Origin: Nonomuraea turcica
GTDB taxonomy: Bacteria > Actinomycetota > Actinomycetes > Streptosporangiales > Streptosporangiaceae
NCBI RefSeq assembly: GCF_030718205.1
Contig: NZ_JAUZQF010000024.1
Span: forward strand, 62,001 to 126,000
Reading direction: 5' to 3'
DNA length: 64,000 nucleotides
Shown: positions 6,196-64,000 of the stretch, piece after piece
Numbering within the stretch: position 1 is the first letter of the stretch
Layout: each line of letters begins with the position of its first letter
Made by a program: the position numbers and the translations under genes
Notes under the pieces: model-generated
Databases searched by the model: none
Seen by the model: only the letters and a program-made list of their open reading frames with translations
Told to the model about the DNA's origin: nothing

Positions 6196-8460
6196 TTGAG
6201 CGAGGAAGCGTCCTTCGGAGCGCTGCTGAGAGCCCACCGGCAGGCGGCGGACCTGACGATCGAGGAGCTTTCGCATGCCTCCGGGGTGAGCGTGCGGGCG
6301 ATCGGCGACATGGAGCGAGGCGTCAGCCGCGGCCCGCAACGCCGTACCGTCGCCGCGCTGGCCGAGGTGTTGCGTCTGCCACCGGATGACCACGACGCCC
6401 TCATCGCGGCCGCCCGGGCCGGACGGCCGCGCCCTGCCCCCTCCACCGCCGGGGTCTGTGAGCTGCCCCGGGGCATCGGCGACTTCACCGGCCGCGAGCA
6501 TGAGCTCGGCCTGTTGCGCGAGCTGGCCGCCCGGCACACCGGTGACGACGGTCCAGCCGTCACCGCGACCCTCTGGGGGACAGCGGGGATGGGCAAGACC
6601 GCGCTGGCCGTACACGCCGCCGGCCGGCTGGCTGACCTGTTCCCCGACGGCCGGTTCTTCCTCGACCTGCGCGGCATGGACGCCACACCACTGGAGAGCG
6701 GGAACGGTCTGGCACGGCTGCTGAAGGCGCTGGGCGTGCCCGAGCCGAGCATCCCCGCCGACGAGCAGGAACGCGCGGGGCACTACCGGGCCCTGCTGAA
6801 CGAGCGGCGCTGCCTCATCGTGCTCGACAATGCGGCCAGCGAAAGCCAGGTACGCCCCCTGCTGCCAGGCGGCGGACCCAGCATGACCTTGATCACCAGC
6901 CGTCGCCCGCTGGCCGGGCTGGAGGGCGTTCACCAGGTCCCACTCGCCCAGCTCGCCGACGTGGAGGCCGCCGATCTGTTGCGGGCCATCGTGGGCGACA
7001 TCCGCTCGGCGGCCGAACCGGACGCGGTCGATGAACTCGCCCGGCTGTGCGGCCATCTGCCACTGGCCATGCGCATCGCGGGCAACCGGCTGCAGAGCCG
7101 GCCGGGCTGGACCATCAAACAGCTCACCGGACGGCTCAGTGACGAGGAGCGCCGCCTTGACGCCCTGGCAGCCGGGGACCTGCACGTCGCCGCCGCTTTC
7201 GCGCTCTCGTACGACCAGCTCACCCCGACCGCCCGGCAGACCTTCCGCTGGCTCGTGCTGGCCGCCGCGCCGGACTTCGGCGCGCCCCTGGCCGCGGTGC
7301 TCACCCAACTCGACCTGGACGACGCCGAGGACGCGCTGGAGGAACTGGTCGAGCTCGGCCTGCTGCAGTCTCCCTACCCTGCCCGCTATCGCTTCCACGA
7401 CCTGGTCCGGCTGTATGCGCGCGCCCAGCTGTCGAAGGAGGAGCCGGTCGAGGCGCAGCAGGAGGCACGCCGGCGCATGGAGGCCTGGCTGCTGGAGGTG
7501 GCAGTTGTCGCCGGGCGCTGGTTCGAGCCGGGGTACGGCGCGCCGGCACCGGATTGGCGATCGCTGGTCACGCTCCGCAGCCGGCAGGAGGCGAGCGATT
7601 GGCTGCAGGCGGAGGGGACGGCCTGGCTGGAGGCGTTGCGCTCGGTGGCTCGTCAAGGCGAGCACGCGACGGTGGTCGAGGTGGCCGAGTCCATGCACTG
7701 GTTCTCCGACCAGTGGATCCCGTGGGGGCACTGGCGCGAGGTGTTCGATCTGTCCTCCAGCGCGGCGCGAGCCATGGGCGACCGGCTGCAGGAGGCGGTG
7801 CATCTCAACTATCTGTCCTGGGCGCTGCATCGGTGTGAGGGCCGTGCAGAGGATGCGGAGGCGGCCGCGTTGCGGGCCTTGGACCTGGCCCGCGAGGTCG
7901 GCGACGTACGCCAGCAAGGGTGGGCGCTGGTGTATGCCACCTGGGCCATCCGGGATGATCCGGCGAACCTGGAGCGTGAGTTGGACTACATTCGGCGCGC
8001 CGCTGATCTCCTGCTGCAGGCCGGGGATCTGGAGGGCTATCCCCAAGCCATGACGGCCTATACCAGCGCCCTGCGGCGGGCGGGCCGGGTGGAGGAGGCC
8101 GTGGAGCGCTGCCTGGAACTGGTGACCATGCTGCGTGACCCCGGCTACGGCGGTTCCCCAGCCATCGTCAGCTTCAGTCTGGGGACCGCCCTGGGCAGGC
8201 TCGGCTCGGCCTACCTCGCGCTGGAACGCTGGGAGGAGGCGGTCGACGCCTTCCAGCAGGCACTGCCCGAGCTGCGCGCCCACCCGATTGCCTTGGCCTT
8301 GGGCGGCACCCAGCGCGGCCTGGGCACCGCACTGCGGCAGGTGGGCCGGGTCGAGGAGGCCCGCCACGCGTTGACGGAGGCGGTACGCCTGTTCGAGGCA
8401 TCCGGTGACACCGAGCCGGCCGCCGAGGCGCGCCGTGAGCTTGAGGCACTGACGAGCTGA
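6196..8460 (+). CDS. XRE-HTH / NB-ARC / TPR regulator
   Basis: 754 residues with a TTG start preceded by GAGGAGGACAAGGGG. An XRE helix-turn-helix occupies about 8-65 (LTIEELSHASGVSVRAIGDM). The NB-ARC ATPase follows: P-loop GTAGMGKTAL at 128-137, kinase-2 strand LIVLDN at 207-212, TLITSRR at 231-237 and a GLPLA-like CGHLPLAMRIAGN. The C-terminal third is a tetratricopeptide-like helical array. This is the AfsR-like STAND architecture without a BTAD domain. Its signal and targets are unknown. A minus-strand open frame across the same DNA is a GC-rich shadow. Confidence 0.9.
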   Translation: MSEEASFGALLRAHRQAADLTIEELSHASGVSVRAIGDMERGVSRGPQRRTVAALAEVLRLPPDDHDALIAAARAGRPRPAPSTAGVCELPRGIGDFTGREHELGLLRELAARHTGDDGPAVTATLWGTAGMGKTALAVHAAGRLADLFPDGRFFLDLRGMDATPLESGNGLARLLKALGVPEPSIPADEQERAGHYRALLNERRCLIVLDNAASESQVRPLLPGGGPSMTLITSRRPLAGLEGVHQVPLAQLADVEAADLLRAIVGDIRSAAEPDAVDELARLCGHLPLAMRIAGNRLQSRPGWTIKQLTGRLSDEERRLDALAAGDLHVAAAFALSYDQLTPTARQTFRWLVLAAAPDFGAPLAAVLTQLDLDDAEDALEELVELGLLQSPYPARYRFHDLVRLYARAQLSKEEPVEAQQEARRRMEAWLLEVAVVAGRWFEPGYGAPAPDWRSLVTLRSRQEASDWLQAEGTAWLEALRSVARQGEHATVVEVAESMHWFSDQWIPWGHWREVFDLSSSAARAMGDRLQEAVHLNYLSWALHRCEGRAEDAEAAALRALDLAREVGDVRQQGWALVYATWAIRDDPANLERELDYIRRAADLLLQAGDLEGYPQAMTAYTSALRRAGRVEEAVERCLELVTMLRDPGYGGSPAIVSFSLGTALGRLGSAYLALERWEEAVDAFQQALPELRAHPIALALGGTQRGLGTALRQVGRVEEARHALTEAVRLFEASGDTEPAAEARRELEALTS

Positions 8461-60600: not shown

Positions 60601-60632
60601 TCCTGAGTCAGGATTCGCGCCAAAACTCAGGA
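60601..60632. terminator. possible terminator at the end of the nitrile hydratase operon
   Basis: TCCTGAGT at 60601-60608 pairs with ACTCAGGA at 60625-60632 across a 16-base loop. The stem overlaps the stop of the cobalt transporter (60627) and lies between convergent genes. The loop is long, so confidence is limited. Confidence 0.4.
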
Positions 60633-61724
60633 TCGCTGGGTTACTTCGTCGGCGGCACCTTGCCGGTCGCCGTACTTCTCGGCGAGTCCGCGGTAGCGCC
60701 AGATGGCGGCGGCGGAGAGCCAGGAGGCCGCGAAGACGGCGACGACGACGTAGCCGAGCAGTTCGAATTGGTCGGCCAGGGAGGCGTAGGCGGTGAGGAG
60801 TCCCCCGGCTCCGGTGGCGTCGGCGACGAGCCCCGCGACGTAGACACTGGCGATGAACGCGGCGACGGCCACGGTCATGCCGGTCATGGCGATGTTGTAG
60901 TAGAGCCTGCGGGCGGGGCTGCGGTACGCCCACGAGTACAGGCGTGTCATCAGCATGCTATCGGCGGTGTCGAAGGCACTCATTCCCGCGGCGAAGAGCA
61001 GCGGGAGGGAGAGGACAGCGAGGGTGGGCAGGCCGGACCCGTGGACGGCGGCGCTGGCGGACAGGGTGAGCAGGGTGATCTCACTGGCGGTCTCCAGACC
61101 GAGGCCGAAGAGGATGCCAACCGGGTACATGTGCCATGAGGAACGGATCAGCGCGCGGGCGCGGCGGCCGAGGAGGCGGTTCATGAGGCCCCGGTTGAGC
61201 AGGTGCCGCTCGAGCTCCTCCTGGTGCAGCCGGCCCTGCGCCATACGCCGCCACAGGCCGACAATGCCGGTCAGCACCATGAGGTTGAGCACGGCGACGA
61301 GCAGCAGGAACAGTACGGCCACGATCTGCGAGACCAGGCCGCCGACATGGCGGAAGGAGCCGATGCCCGAGCCTGCGTGGCCCGCGGCGAGCGCGACGAC
61401 GAAGGCGAGGGCGAGGACCACGGTGGAGTGGCCCATGGCGAAGAAGAAGCCCACGCCGACGGGTCTGCGTCCGCGTTGCATCATCAGCCTGGTGGTGTCG
61501 TCGATGGCGGCGATGTGGTCGGCGTCGAAGGCGTGCCGCATCCCGAGTGTGTAGGCAAGGGTTCCGGCTCCGGCGAAGGCCCCGGCGCCGGCCGGGCCGC
61601 TGGCGTAGAAGAGGTACAGGCTCCATCCGATGACGTGCAGGGCGGCGATGACGCCGACGATGCCCGTAATGCGCAGCCGTTCGGCGCGGGTCCATCGGCC
61701 GGGGGTGATGGTCGTTGTGGTCAC
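60627..61724 (-). CDS. nhlF: cobalt transporter NhlF (NiCoT family)
   Basis: 365 residues from the GTG at 61724 (AAGGA upstream). Eight membrane helices; the NiCoT signature HAFDADHIAAIDD (HX4DH) lies in helix 2, with GFFFAMGHSTVV and LGLETASEI as further family motifs. It imports Co2+ (or Ni2+) through the membrane. Next to a cobalt-type nitrile hydratase it should feed metal to the P14K-type activator. A strong hairpin separates it from the upstream gene. Confidence 0.92.
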   Translation of the reverse strand: MTTTTITPGRWTRAERLRITGIVGVIAALHVIGWSLYLFYASGPAGAGAFAGAGTLAYTLGMRHAFDADHIAAIDDTTRLMMQRGRRPVGVGFFFAMGHSTVVLALAFVVALAAGHAGSGIGSFRHVGGLVSQIVAVLFLLLVAVLNLMVLTGIVGLWRRMAQGRLHQEELERHLLNRGLMNRLLGRRARALIRSSWHMYPVGILFGLGLETASEITLLTLSASAAVHGSGLPTLAVLSLPLLFAAGMSAFDTADSMLMTRLYSWAYRSPARRLYYNIAMTGMTVAVAAFIASVYVAGLVADATGAGGLLTAYASLADQFELLGYVVVAVFAASWLSAAAIWRYRGLAEKYGDRQGAADEVTQRS

Positions 61725-61876: not shown

Positions 61877-62185
61877 TTACGCCCCGGGCAGGGCACCCAT
61901 CTCGTTCTCTCCAACCAGACCGTGATCGACCAGTACGTGTTCGAGCGCCGCGAGCCAGTGCTCGTAGTACTGCCAGCTGCCCTGCTCGGCCGTGGGGGCG
62001 GACTCCCATGCGCCGATGGCGGCGATGAGCCGCTGCTGGAATGCGTCCCAGGGGTAGTGGCCGAACTCCGACAGGGCGACGGCGACGCCGAACGCCCGGC
62101 GCTGCCAGTCGGCGTCGAAGGTGGGCGCGTTCATGTCGGTGACGCAGGTTTCGTGCAGGGGTGCGGTGGTGGCGGTGGCCTCCAT
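61877..62185 (-). CDS. nitrile hydratase activator (P14K/NhlE-type self-subunit-swapping chaperone)
   Basis: 102 residues with AGAAAGGGAATCCC upstream. TFDADWQRRAFGVAVALSEF and YPWDAFQQRLIAAIGAWES followed by YYEHWLAALEHVLVDHGL resemble the N-terminal half of the beta subunit, as known for cobalt-type activators that exchange alpha subunits and insert Co(III) while the claw Cys are oxidised. The usual lysine-rich tail is not obvious. It follows alpha after 32 bases. Confidence 0.9.
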   Translation of the reverse strand: MEATATTAPLHETCVTDMNAPTFDADWQRRAFGVAVALSEFGHYPWDAFQQRLIAAIGAWESAPTAEQGSWQYYEHWLAALEHVLVDHGLVGENEMGALPGA

Positions 62186-62217: not shown

Positions 62218-62841
62218 TCAGGCGGCGGGTGAAGGAACCTCGGCGATGCCGATCATCGATTCGGTGGTGACCAGGGCGGAGAGTTCCTCCTCGGTCATGC
62301 CGTCGGTTCCGGCGGGCCGCTGCGGAACGACGAACCAGCGAGAATGACCGCTGCTGTCCCACACCCGCAGTTCGACGGACGGGTCGAGGTCCAGGCCGAT
62401 CTCCTTGAGCACCACACGAGGCTCCCGGGCCGCGCGGGCGCGGAAGGTCGGGTCCTTGTACCAGTACGGCGGAAGACCGAGCACGGGCCAGGGGAAGCAG
62501 GAGCACAGGGTGCAGATGACCAGGTTGTGCACGCCGGAGGTGTTGGCCACGGCCTGCAGGTGCTCGCCTTCGGCGCCGTCCATGCCGACGGGCAGGTCGA
62601 GCTCCGCGACGGCGGCCGGCGTGTCCTTGACGAGCCGTTCGGCGAACTCCGGGTCGGTCCAGGCACGGGCGACGATCTTGGCTCCGTTGAGCGGCGTCAT
62701 GTCGGTCTCGAAGTAGCCGAGCACCTTGTCGACGGTCGCGCCGGTGATCACGCCCTTCTCGATGAGCAGGGCCTCCAGCGCCCGGACGCGGGCGGCGCTG
62801 CGGGCTTCGCGGTCTTCGGGGTAACCGAACTGTACGGTCAC
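62218..62841 (-). CDS. nhhA: nitrile hydratase alpha subunit, cobalt type
   Basis: 207 residues from the GTG at 62841, overlapping the beta stop (GTGA). The metal claw is ICTLCSCFPWP with C110, C113, S114 and C115; Thr at 111 indicates the low-spin Co(III) type, where Fe enzymes have Ser. VWDSSGHSRWFVVPQRPAGT is the C-terminal signature. The enzyme hydrates nitriles to amides in the cytoplasm. No amidase or nitrilase gene is in view. Confidence 0.96.
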   Translation of the reverse strand: MTVQFGYPEDREARSAARVRALEALLIEKGVITGATVDKVLGYFETDMTPLNGAKIVARAWTDPEFAERLVKDTPAAVAELDLPVGMDGAEGEHLQAVANTSGVHNLVICTLCSCFPWPVLGLPPYWYKDPTFRARAAREPRVVLKEIGLDLDPSVELRVWDSSGHSRWFVVPQRPAGTDGMTEEELSALVTTESMIGIAEVPSPAA

Positions 62842-63590
62842 TGCTGTTCCTCCGTGGCGGGGGTGAGGTAGGCCTGGTAGAGCTCGCCGTAGAGCACGGC
62901 GCCGGGTTCGGCGAGCTCTCCCCAGATGTCGGTGGGTTCGAAGCGGACGGCGTAGACCGGCATGGGCTCTCCGATGCCATCGGGGCCGGTGGAGCAGAAG
63001 TAGCCGTAGTTGCCCTCGAAGACGCGCTCCACGGTGCCGGTACGGCCGCGCAGATTGCCCGGCAGCCGGGTGTGTTCGGTGGGCGGCACGTCCTTGACGG
63101 TCACCCGGTCGCCGACGGTGAAGGCCGGGGACCCAGCCGGACCCTGGCGGGGGGAGTCGCCCTCGCGCAGGTAGCGGATGACCTGGTCGTCGATGCGTTC
63201 GTCTCCGCCCTCGGGCAGTGCGAGTCCCAGATCCTGGAGGTACTCCGCGGCCTTCGCCTCCAGCTCCTCCGCGGTGATGTAGCCCTGGGAGACGAAGAAC
63301 CCGCTGATGCCGCCGAGCCACTTCTCGTAGTAGCGGTACTGGAAGTAGGCGAAGGGGTGCATCGCCTCGGCGCCCTTGCGCAGGTCCGCCCAGGTCCAGA
63401 CGGAGGAGAAGGCAGTGGGCACGTCCTCGATCGGGTACTGGGGCACGGCGTCGCAGAGGTGGGCGCTCAGGCCCATCATCGCGACGTGGATGCCGAAGAT
63501 GCGCTGCTCCCAGTCCTCGACGAAGACACGGGGTTCGTAGTCGACGGGGCCGAGGTTTTCCAGGCCTCCCAGGTGGTGCTGTAGTTTCAT
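62838..63590 (-). CDS. nhhB: nitrile hydratase beta subunit
   Basis: 250 residues with GGAAGGAC 4 bases before the ATG. MKLQHHLGGLENLGPVDYEP and FEDWEQRIFGIHVAMMGLSA-like N-domain, an internal YYEKWLGGISGF, and a C-terminal SH3-like barrel (FTVGDRVTVKDV, RTGTVERVFEGNYGYF) match the family. The beta arginines hold the oxidised alpha-claw sulfurs. The order beta-alpha-activator is that of cobalt-type operons. Coupled to the upstream membrane gene by ATGA. Confidence 0.95.
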   Translation of the reverse strand: MKLQHHLGGLENLGPVDYEPRVFVEDWEQRIFGIHVAMMGLSAHLCDAVPQYPIEDVPTAFSSVWTWADLRKGAEAMHPFAYFQYRYYEKWLGGISGFFVSQGYITAEELEAKAAEYLQDLGLALPEGGDERIDDQVIRYLREGDSPRQGPAGSPAFTVGDRVTVKDVPPTEHTRLPGNLRGRTGTVERVFEGNYGYFCSTGPDGIGEPMPVYAVRFEPTDIWGELAEPGAVLYGELYQAYLTPATEEQQ

Positions 63591-64000
63591 GACTGTCCTT
63601 CCGGGGTCGGCTCGGCGGCCGGGCGTGCGGTCATCGCGGCTCCCCACCACTCCGAGGCGATGCCGAACACCGCGCCGAGGACCATGGACAACGCCGCGAC
63701 GAGCGCCGGGTTGCTGATGGATGCGGTGGTGATGCCGTGGCCGGTGGCGGCCACCGTGCCCACCGTGGAGGCGAAGCCCCACACGATGGCCGGAATCTTC
63801 GAGAGCAGGGGGAGCTTCGACGCCTGCACCATGGCGGCGCTGCCGACACCCACGGCGACGACGGCGATGGCGGTGCCGCCGCCCAGCGCGTGAATGACCA
63901 GCAGTGTCAGCGAGGCGATGACGATGCCGGTCAGGTTCGAGGCGATCGACCTCACCATGCCGCCGGTGCCGGCTCCGAGGATGAAGAAGGAGGCCCAGGC
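63587..64000 (-). CDS. DUF1097-like membrane protein (5' end outside the window)
   Basis: 137 residues visible, with the frame open to the right edge. Four membrane helices (NLTGIVIASLTLLVIHALGG, TAIAVVAVGVGSAAMVQASK, ALVAALSMVLGAVFGIASEW) separated by small loops resemble DUF1097/YcdZ. The stop overlaps the beta-subunit start (ATGA), so it is co-translated with nitrile hydratase. Such a protein could take up small substrates or act in urea/amide movement, but that is inference. Confidence 0.7.
   Translation of the reverse strand, partial: AWASFFILGAGTGGMVRSIASNLTGIVIASLTLLVIHALGGGTAIAVVAVGVGSAAMVQASKLPLLSKIPAIVWGFASTVGTVAATGHGITTASISNPALVAALSMVLGAVFGIASEWWGAAMTARPAAEPTPEGQS

What the first reader, a model, noticed from the sequence alone, without database searches (positions are those of the whole stretch)
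63587..64000. DUF1097-like membrane protein coupled to cobalt nitrile hydratase
The ATGA overlap ties a small membrane protein to the beta subunit; no such partner is standard in nitrile hydratase operons. It may move nitriles, amides or metal, or relate to urea-like products.
Basis: partly seen in the sequence, partly recalled or inferred. Interest (0 to 1): 0.6.

Follow-up and report, generated by a model that had tools for sequence, protein, structure and literature searches.

The report
Membrane partner of cobalt nitrile hydratase
A small membrane protein of unknown function sits beside nitrile-degrading enzymes in three bacterial phyla, and a cousin sits beside an amide-degrading enzyme, which suggests that it lets small amides or nitriles cross the membrane.

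Summary
The gene is real and longer than the window shows: 172 aa, starting 106 bases past the window's end. It is a DUF1097 protein (PF06496, E 2.4e-31). Its stop overlaps the start of the Co-type nitrile hydratase (NHase) beta gene by four bases (ATGA).

DUF1097-nthB-nthA-accessory-cobalt transporter recurs in Actinomycetota, Pseudomonadota and Cyanobacteriota, with changing transporter types. All 48 plasmid DUF1097 matches adjoin NHase genes (41 are Rhizobium), though 11 of 58 such NHases lack it. Of 105 actinobacterial places, 76 lie within 3 kb of NHase alpha and 15 more within 6 kb of a formamidase/acetamidase-family match. Gene order varies; whether the link arose once or several times is unresolved.

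Best reading: a permease or channel for small neutral amides/nitriles, in the role of AmiS/UreI but without detectable sequence kinship. A metal role is less likely: no conserved His, Cys, Met or Asp, and a cobalt transporter is usually present. Transport is inferred, not shown; the structure prediction failed.

The parts
63587..64000 (-). DUF1097 membrane protein, first gene of the presumed operon; 137 of its 172 codons lie in the window, the ATG is 106 bases beyond the window end (L006:6106)
   Evidence: hydropathy gives 5-6 membrane spans
63587..63590 (-). ATGA stop/start overlap between DUF1097 and nthB
   Evidence: same in 5 of 5 copies
62838..63590 (-). nthB, nitrile hydratase beta subunit (250 aa)
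   Evidence: PF21006, PF02211, TIGR03888
62218..62841 (-). nthA, nitrile hydratase alpha subunit (207 aa), metal motif CTLCSCF (cobalt type); four-base overlap with nthB
   Evidence: PF02979, TIGR01323; motif
61877..62185 (-). nitrile hydratase accessory protein (activator / subunit-swapping chaperone type)
   Evidence: TIGR03889 E 4.3e-25
60627..61724 (-). HoxN/HupN/NixA-type nickel/cobalt transporter, presumed cobalt supply
   Evidence: PF03824, TIGR00802

Best explanation
DUF1097 in this operon is most likely a small (5-6 membrane spans) permease or channel for the uncharged small molecules of the pathway: the nitrile substrate, or more likely the amide that nitrile hydratase makes and amidases use. 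A GlxA-type regulator beside the operon probably senses an inducer and turns on one transcript; DUF1097 passes the solute, NHase (alpha and beta, given cobalt by the NicO transporter and loaded by the accessory protein) hydrates nitrile to amide, and an amidase elsewhere completes the path. Shown: the gene, its family, its overlap with nthB, the conserved neighbourhood with NHase and of a paralogue with formamidase, purifying selection, lack of strictly conserved metal ligands. Inferred: membrane location, transport, cargo, direction, co-transcription, the regulator's role.
For: (1) Conserved neighbourhood in three phyla: in 8 of 8 annotated plasmid loci that I chose from 48, a GTP-binding protein gene, DUF1097, nthB, nthA, accessory gene and Co transporter follow one another; 7 of the 8 are followed by a regulator (GlxA, DJ-1/PfpI or helix-turn-helix by annotation), the cyanobacterial one not. 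The transporter is HoxN, CbtBA, HupE/UreJ or an energy-coupling-factor permease, while DUF1097 stays. (2) 76 of 105 actinobacterial DUF1097 places within 3 kb of NHase alpha, 15 more within 6 kb of an FmdA_AmdA match, 14 neither, one of these untested (from 37, 38, 74, 75, 78, 79). Random placement would give about 0.25 NHase links among the 73 of one genus sample, where 71 were seen; these genomes share ancestry and are not independent. (3) The NHase-linked DUF1097 proteins, with one unlinked row (G702), form one group (95/93), while the gene order around them differs in at least three ways. (4) A paralogue in this same genome sits with an AmiC-like binding protein, an FmdB-like zinc ribbon and formamidase FmdA; the second NHase arrangement carries an AmiC-like protein, MarR, CbtA and an FmdA relative. 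Small amides are the common theme. (5) No column of 52 NHase-linked sequences is 95% or more His, Cys, Met or Asp; Trp, Phe, Gly, Pro and one Glu are. (6) 0 of 9 AmiS_UreI genes in the 8 genomes seen in both and lie by an NHase alpha, and this genome has none, so AmiS does not fill that place there.
Against: 11 of 58 plasmid NHases of the same alpha clade lack DUF1097, so the enzyme does not need it. Small nitriles are thought to cross membranes unaided (general knowledge). Ten of the 17 over-cut-off places in the class sample are not by NHase; four have alcohol dehydrogenase, DUF59-type or amidohydrolase neighbours (Pfam on L107, L108, L110; L109 by likeness) and one an NMT1-type ABC binding protein, so the cargo may be broader than amides. 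Five of the 11 Streptomyces FmdA links rest on partial FmdA matches (65-82 bits). E. coli YcdZ, same family, was proposed as a nucleoside transporter NupT on regulatory grounds (PMC3454398, passages). No relative with a solved structure and no usable model.
Confidence: 0.5

Rival explanations
1. DUF1097 helps cobalt supply: an auxiliary subunit of the cobalt transporter or a membrane dock that hands cobalt to the GTP-binding protein and accessory protein.
For: All 8 DUF1097 plasmid loci read hold a cobalt transporter gene, and DUF1097 stands between a GTP-binding protein gene (cobW type in the one scanned, PF02492 and PF07683) and nthB; in one arrangement it overlaps the accessory-like gene and precedes cbtA.
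Against: It is kept while the cobalt transporter changes among four types, so it is no fixed subunit of one. No His/Cys/Met/Asp conserved in 95% of 52 sequences, though Cys56, His72 and His132 occur in 24, 22 and 25 of them. A paralogue accompanies formamidase, where none of the five neighbours scanned is a cobalt gene.
Confidence: 0.18
2. DUF1097 is a membrane anchor or assembly factor that holds NHase or the amidase at the membrane, so that product is channelled or the complex is matured there.
For: Overlap with nthB or with the accessory-like gene; co-inheritance with NHase.
Against: Relatives sit by other enzymes (formamidase, alcohol dehydrogenase cluster), which a specific anchor would not predict; NHases of the same clade occur without it.
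Confidence: 0.14
3. The link reflects shared regulation only: DUF1097 moves another small solute, for example an inducer, a nucleoside or nucleobase (as proposed for YcdZ/NupT) or ammonium.
For: YcdZ is predicted to be CytR-regulated (PMC3454398, passages); unlinked family members occur; one Streptomyces locus (L174) has an amidohydrolase and an amino-acid-kinase-family gene near by, which could be nucleobase or ureide genes.
Against: No nucleoside gene is annotated in the eight plasmid loci and none was among the neighbours scanned of the formamidase type; links to nitrile/amide enzymes dominate.
Confidence: 0.13
4. Chance adjacency or hitch-hiking without function.
For: The operon seems to move between genera: 2 of 54 genomes of this genus have it, and DUF1097 is 91-94% identical to copies of Streptomyces, another family. 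A single ancient link inherited by all is not excluded.
Against: Purifying selection, survival of the link across three phyla, and several gene orders.
Confidence: 0.02

Closest known systems
AmiS/UreI family (PF02293): amide permease of amidase operons, proton-gated urea channel of Helicobacter
   Same: Similar size (family profile 166 positions), several membrane spans, a place beside amide-hydrolysing enzymes and AmiC-like sensors (the amidase operon order is recalled); UreI binds urea with aromatic residues (PMC10392092, passages); an AmiS/UreI gene beside an amidase is described in PMC9420511 (passages).
   Different: No detectable sequence kinship: profile-profile probability 0.9%; the AmiS profile finds the urea channel structures 3ux4, 6nsk and 6nsj, the DUF1097 profile finds none. 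This genome has no AmiS_UreI member.
E. coli YcdZ (NupT), DUF1097
   Same: Same Pfam family (131 bits); five predicted spans according to PMC3454398 (passage).
   Different: No nitrile or amide gene in the 7 kb read around it; on a very long branch outside the NHase-linked group; function also untested.
Rhodococcus rhodochrous nhh/nhl operons (nhlBAE, cobalt transporter NhlF, AmiC-type regulators; names recalled)
   Same: Order beta-alpha-accessory-cobalt transporter; one R. rhodochrous plasmid locus shows nthB-nthA-accessory-HoxN transporter-amidase.
   Different: No DUF1097 annotated in that 12.6-kb locus and its alpha lies outside lineage A in the tree.
Fe-type NHase with COG0523 activator Nha3 / P44K / P47K
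   Same: In the plasmid loci a GTP-binding protein gene stands by NHase, as Nha3 does.
   Different: Here it goes with Co-motif NHase plus an accessory gene, while PMC2770081 (passages) states that Nha3 is found exclusively with Fe-type genes; whether this GTPase belongs to Nha3 was not tested. The operon in the window has no such gene next to it.

Membership tests
DUF1097 (PF06496) | Profile match over the gathering score across the whole domain | tested here: met
   109.3 bits against 24.6, profile positions 1-141 of 142
DUF1097 (PF06496) | About five membrane spans, as reported for YcdZ | tested here: met
   Hydropathy windows: six peaks over 1.3, four of them over 1.6; no experiment
Co-type nitrile hydratase operon | alpha and beta subunits, cobalt motif CTLCSC, accessory protein, cobalt transporter | tested here: met
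AmiS/UreI (PF02293) | Match to the family profile | tested here: not met
   Pfam scan up to E 1 lists only DUF1097; profile-profile probability 0.9%
AmiS/UreI (PF02293) | Amide or urea channel activity; hexameric ring | not testable with these tools
   Needs transport assay and structure; the model was unusable
Metal transporters (cobalt/nickel) | Conserved His/Asp/Cys/Met metal ligands in membrane spans | tested here: not met
   None at 95% in 52 NHase-linked sequences; Glu152 in 50 of 52; Cys56, His72, His132 in about half or fewer
Metal transporters (cobalt/nickel) | Profile match to a known metal transporter family | tested here: not met
   Only DUF1097 in Pfam up to E 1; no NCBIfam match up to E 0.1

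The most novel reading that the evidence does not exclude
DUF1097 is an unrecognised family of small-solute channels for amides and related neutral molecules, unrelated in sequence to AmiS/UreI, which cobalt nitrile hydratases of three phyla and actinobacterial formamidase operons have kept as their permease through changes of gene order and of cobalt transporter.
Probability: 0.4. Interest if true: 0.7.

Novelty: new variant of a known kind. Interest (0 to 1): 0.56.

Why it matters
DUF1097 is a family of unknown function that includes an E. coli protein. A strong link to nitrile hydratase in three phyla, and of a paralogue to formamidase, gives it a testable function and a short list of candidate cargoes. 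Nitrile hydratase is an industrial biocatalyst used mostly as whole cells; PMC7193024 (passage) names poor permeation of some nitriles as a limit, so a dedicated permease would be of direct use. The same loci show a GTP-binding protein gene of cobW type beside Co-type NHases, whereas the 2009 survey PMC2770081 (passages) reports its NHase-linked subgroup exclusively with Fe-type genes.

Tried and rejected
Frame mistake: I first gave window:63587-63998:-, which is out of frame. Replaced.

Claim withdrawn on checking: a draft of this report said that DUF1097 was taken up by three separate NHase lineages. The quick NHase alpha tree shows three groups, but its backbone is open, and holding the three together gives a higher likelihood than the free tree (p-AU 0.846). 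One ancient association with later losses and rearrangements is therefore as good a reading. Odds of the best explanation are unchanged, since they rest on the company the gene keeps and not on the number of origins; the novel case was reworded, its interest lowered from 0.72 to 0.70 and the overall interest from 0.57 to 0.56.

Metal transport was considered and put second (see rivals). Shared ancestry with AmiS/UreI was tested and not found at sequence level. Structure: ColabFold on five near-identical sequences gave mean pLDDT 44.3 and pTM 0.29, so no fold search was run; the tool admits few sources, and the viral contig scan gave no relative. The paralogue finds no plasmid relative. No Rfam match around the start. 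The promoter scan gave nothing on the operon strand. PHROGs and NCBIfam: no match.

Rows dropped before counts. One search counts only places over the Pfam cut-off: 20 weaker rows and G855 were left out. G906 is counted as 'neither' though it was not searched. The FmdA list was cut off, and I entered only rows that lay near a DUF1097 place, so FmdA links are lower bounds. The plasmid search used an NHase-linked protein as query and so favours that subfamily; 41 of its 48 records are Rhizobium. tree: 75 distinct of 112 DUF1097 matches; copies that missed E 1e-5 or 100 aa (among them L034-L036, L038, L042) are not in it; some branches are very long and the bootstrap had not settled; lineage A alone has weak support (54/11). 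tree: 79 of 88 alpha rows, nine type-B rows left out by me, quick method without bootstrap. Of the 12 stretches I read four (L170, L172, L174, L176) and listed the ORFs of L179; the others served only in the search.

Full report
WHAT IS THERE. The minus strand at the right end of the window carries a presumed operon that starts outside it. Taking DNA beyond the window, the first gene runs from L006:6106 to 5588, that is to window base 63587, and codes for 172 aa. Pfam places it in DUF1097 (PF06496, E 2.4e-31). Its TGA overlaps the ATG of nthB in the four bases ATGA at 63590-63587. nthB (62838-63590) overlaps nthA (62218-62841) by four bases too. After them come the accessory gene (61877-62185, TIGR03889) and a NicO-type nickel/cobalt transporter (60627-61724). 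NHase alpha carries CTLCSCF, whose CTLC is the cobalt form (PMC2770081, passages). Upstream, 687 bases away and divergent, lies a GlxA-type regulator (DJ-1/PfpI plus AraC HTH, L006:6794-7861). The gap is conserved at 80% mean column identity among five copies; no Rfam family matches there.

REAL GENE, REAL COUPLING. Four Streptomyces copies keep the gene, its start and the ATGA overlap with GGAAGG(A/G)C in front of nthB. dN/dS is 0.20-0.35 for DUF1097 and 0.13-0.27 for nthB. Two of 54 genomes of the window's genus have the NHase-linked gene, yet it is 91-94% identical to Streptomyces copies, from another family (G530, family f3, shares its contig length with Streptomyces sp. LUP47B), so the operon has probably moved between them.

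CONSERVED LINK, PLASMIDS. tblastn of the full protein found 48 plasmid records, 41 of them Rhizobium. In 47 an NHase alpha gene of 60% identity or more lies 1.3-1.5 kb away by lower record coordinates; the 48th, CP090202.1, has nthB and the accessory gene but no annotated alpha. I read eight of the loci: in all eight a GTP-binding protein gene, DUF1097, nthB, nthA, accessory gene and cobalt transporter follow one another, and seven are followed by a regulator annotated as GlxA (five), DJ-1/PfpI (one) or helix-turn-helix (one); the cyanobacterial one is not. The transporter differs (HoxN, CbtBA, HupE/UreJ, energy-coupling-factor permease). One of the GTPases was scanned and is of cobW type (PF02492 and PF07683). 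Conversely, 178 records hold an NHase alpha; of the 58 at 60% identity or more, 11 lack DUF1097: five Azospirillum, two Methylocystis, Bosea, Pseudanabaena, Gloeocapsa and Gloeocapsopsis; by subtraction at most one of the other 120 has a DUF1097 that could see. I read six of the 11: in Azospirillum, Bosea, Pseudanabaena and Gloeocapsa the GTPase gene runs within about 40-120 bases of nthB, in Gloeocapsopsis transposase genes lie between, and in Methylocystis the alpha gene is in two pieces and unannotated. So DUF1097 is usual in this clade, rare outside it on plasmids, and dispensable.

CONSERVED LINK, GENOMES. In a class sample of 345 genomes DUF1097 passes the cut-off at 17 places in 14 genomes. 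Seven are beside NHase, ten not. Adding samples of two genera (198 and 295 genomes) and the window's genus (54), I tallied 105 places against NHase alpha and FmdA_AmdA in 80 genomes: 76 within 3 kb of NHase alpha, 15 more within 6 kb of an FmdA match only, 14 neither, one of which (G906) was not tested. In the genus of G481 (unnamed; I take it for Mycobacterium, which no call says) 71 of 73 are beside NHase, 45 in front of it and 26 behind it. In the genus of G530 (Streptomyces) 14 of 14 tested are beside NHase (3) or an FmdA match (11, five of them partial matches of 65-82 bits). Chance placement gives about 0.25 NHase links for the first and 0.09 FmdA links for the second, though these genomes share ancestry and do not count as independent. 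Of 145 NHase alpha rows in the 80 genomes, 76 have DUF1097 within 3 kb.

HOW OFTEN DID THE LINK ARISE? The NHase-linked DUF1097 proteins lie on one side of a supported branch (53 rows, 95/93), together with one unlinked row, G702, whose neighbours include a carbon-nitrogen hydrolase and a glutamine-synthetase-like gene. Gene orders differ: A (this window), DUF1097-beta-alpha; B, beta-alpha-accessory-DUF1097-MarR-AmiC-like binding protein (L116), with divergent cbtA and an FmdA relative (L176), an FmdA match lying within 6 kb in 22 places; third (L170), carbon-nitrogen hydrolase-alpha-beta-accessory-like gene-DUF1097-cbtA, with a four-base overlap of accessory-like gene and DUF1097. The NHase alphas of A, B and the third fall in three groups of a quick tree whose backbone is open. 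Holding the three together is not rejected and gives a better likelihood (p-AU 0.846), so one ancient association, kept through rearrangement and lost in some, is as good as several gains. Either way the partner was kept while its position changed, which argues for a working link.

THE AMIDE THREAD. The window's genome has a second DUF1097 gene (G000:C38:470334-470783), not near NHase. Its neighbours are an AmiC-like binding protein (Peripla_BP_5/6), an FmdB-like zinc ribbon, FmdA (E 3.3e-179) and an alpha/beta hydrolase. FmdA lies equally near in three other genomes of the genus and, with full-length or partial matches, in Streptomyces. One Streptomyces locus (L174) has a partial FmdA match, an amino-acid-kinase-family gene and an amidohydrolase near DUF1097. 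NHase makes amides and FmdA-type enzymes hydrolyse the smallest ones; the AmiC-like proteins resemble the urea-binding protein UrtA below its cut-off. The shared denominator is small amides. Other settings are less clear: alcohol dehydrogenase, DUF59-type or amidohydrolase neighbours in four genomes (resembling propane monooxygenase clusters by recall; Pfam on three of the four loci), an NMT1-type binding protein in one, short-chain dehydrogenases in the window's genus.

MECHANISM. I favour a passive or proton-linked permease for small neutral amides or nitriles. For: the company it keeps, 5-6 predicted spans, W31, F34, W37, F40, G60, P105, G110 and F111 in 52 of 52 and N57 and Glu152 in 50 of 52 sequences. 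Against metal: no His, Cys, Met or Asp at 95%, although Cys56, His72 and His132 occur in 24, 22 and 25 of 52, and a cobalt transporter is usually there already. AmiS_UreI genes do not take this place: 0 of 9 in the 8 genomes common to lie by an NHase alpha. It works like AmiS/UreI only by inference; it is not a member of that family by sequence. E. coli YcdZ was proposed to be a nucleoside transporter from its predicted CytR site (PMC3454398, passages), also untested, and sits on a remote branch. Structure prediction failed for want of a deep alignment and no relative is found in the PDB copy.

PRINT. Five held papers contain 'DUF1097' (passages of two read), none with 'nitrile hydratase'. Searches on NHase with GlxA / cobalt transporter, COG0523, nitrile transporter, AmiS/UreI, CbtA/CbtB/HupE and gene neighbourhood, and on ycdZ, showed no description of this operon in the listings (those show 20 of 42 and 15 of 55 papers) or in the passages read. 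The library lacks most subscription papers, so this is no proof of novelty.

VERDICT. Observation confirmed; the link is the usual state of this NHase clade, not an oddity; the cargo is most likely small amides or nitriles (0.5); novelty lies in giving DUF1097 a testable role.

Noticed in passing
G000:C38:464500-476500 (L112): Second DUF1097 gene of the same genome by a formamidase set (AmiC-like protein, FmdB-like zinc ribbon, FmdA, alpha/beta hydrolase), with a 728-aa ORF without Pfam match next to it.
   Followed up: partly
L013-L020, L098, L100-L102 (plasmid loci): A GTP-binding protein gene (cobW type in the one scanned) stands upstream of Co-motif NHase genes, whereas PMC2770081 states that its NHase-linked COG0523 subgroup is found exclusively with Fe-type NHase.
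   Followed up: partly
L170:4232-9352: A third DUF1097-NHase arrangement: 589-aa carbon-nitrogen hydrolase, alpha, beta apparently in two genes (N part by Pfam; C part 6245-6604 by eye only), accessory-like gene, DUF1097, cbtA. Separate beta parts recall thiocyanate hydrolase; a frameshift is not excluded.
   Followed up: partly
L107-L110: DUF1097 in four genomes near a zinc alcohol dehydrogenase, FeS_assembly_P (DUF59-type) protein or amidohydrolase, like the end of a propane monooxygenase cluster by recall.
   Followed up: no
L172 (G702:C24): DUF1097 gene without NHase within 3 kb but near a carbon-nitrogen hydrolase, a glutamine-synthetase-like and a glutamine-amidotransferase-like gene.
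   Followed up: no
L099, L168: Broken or unannotated NHase alpha genes: in two pieces in Methylocystis rosea; none annotated between nthB and the accessory gene in CP090202.1 of Rhizobium leguminosarum.
   Followed up: no
window 62218-62841: NHase alpha also scores weakly against peptide-precursor families (Frankia_peptide, NHLP leader), a kinship that I recall as known.
   Followed up: no
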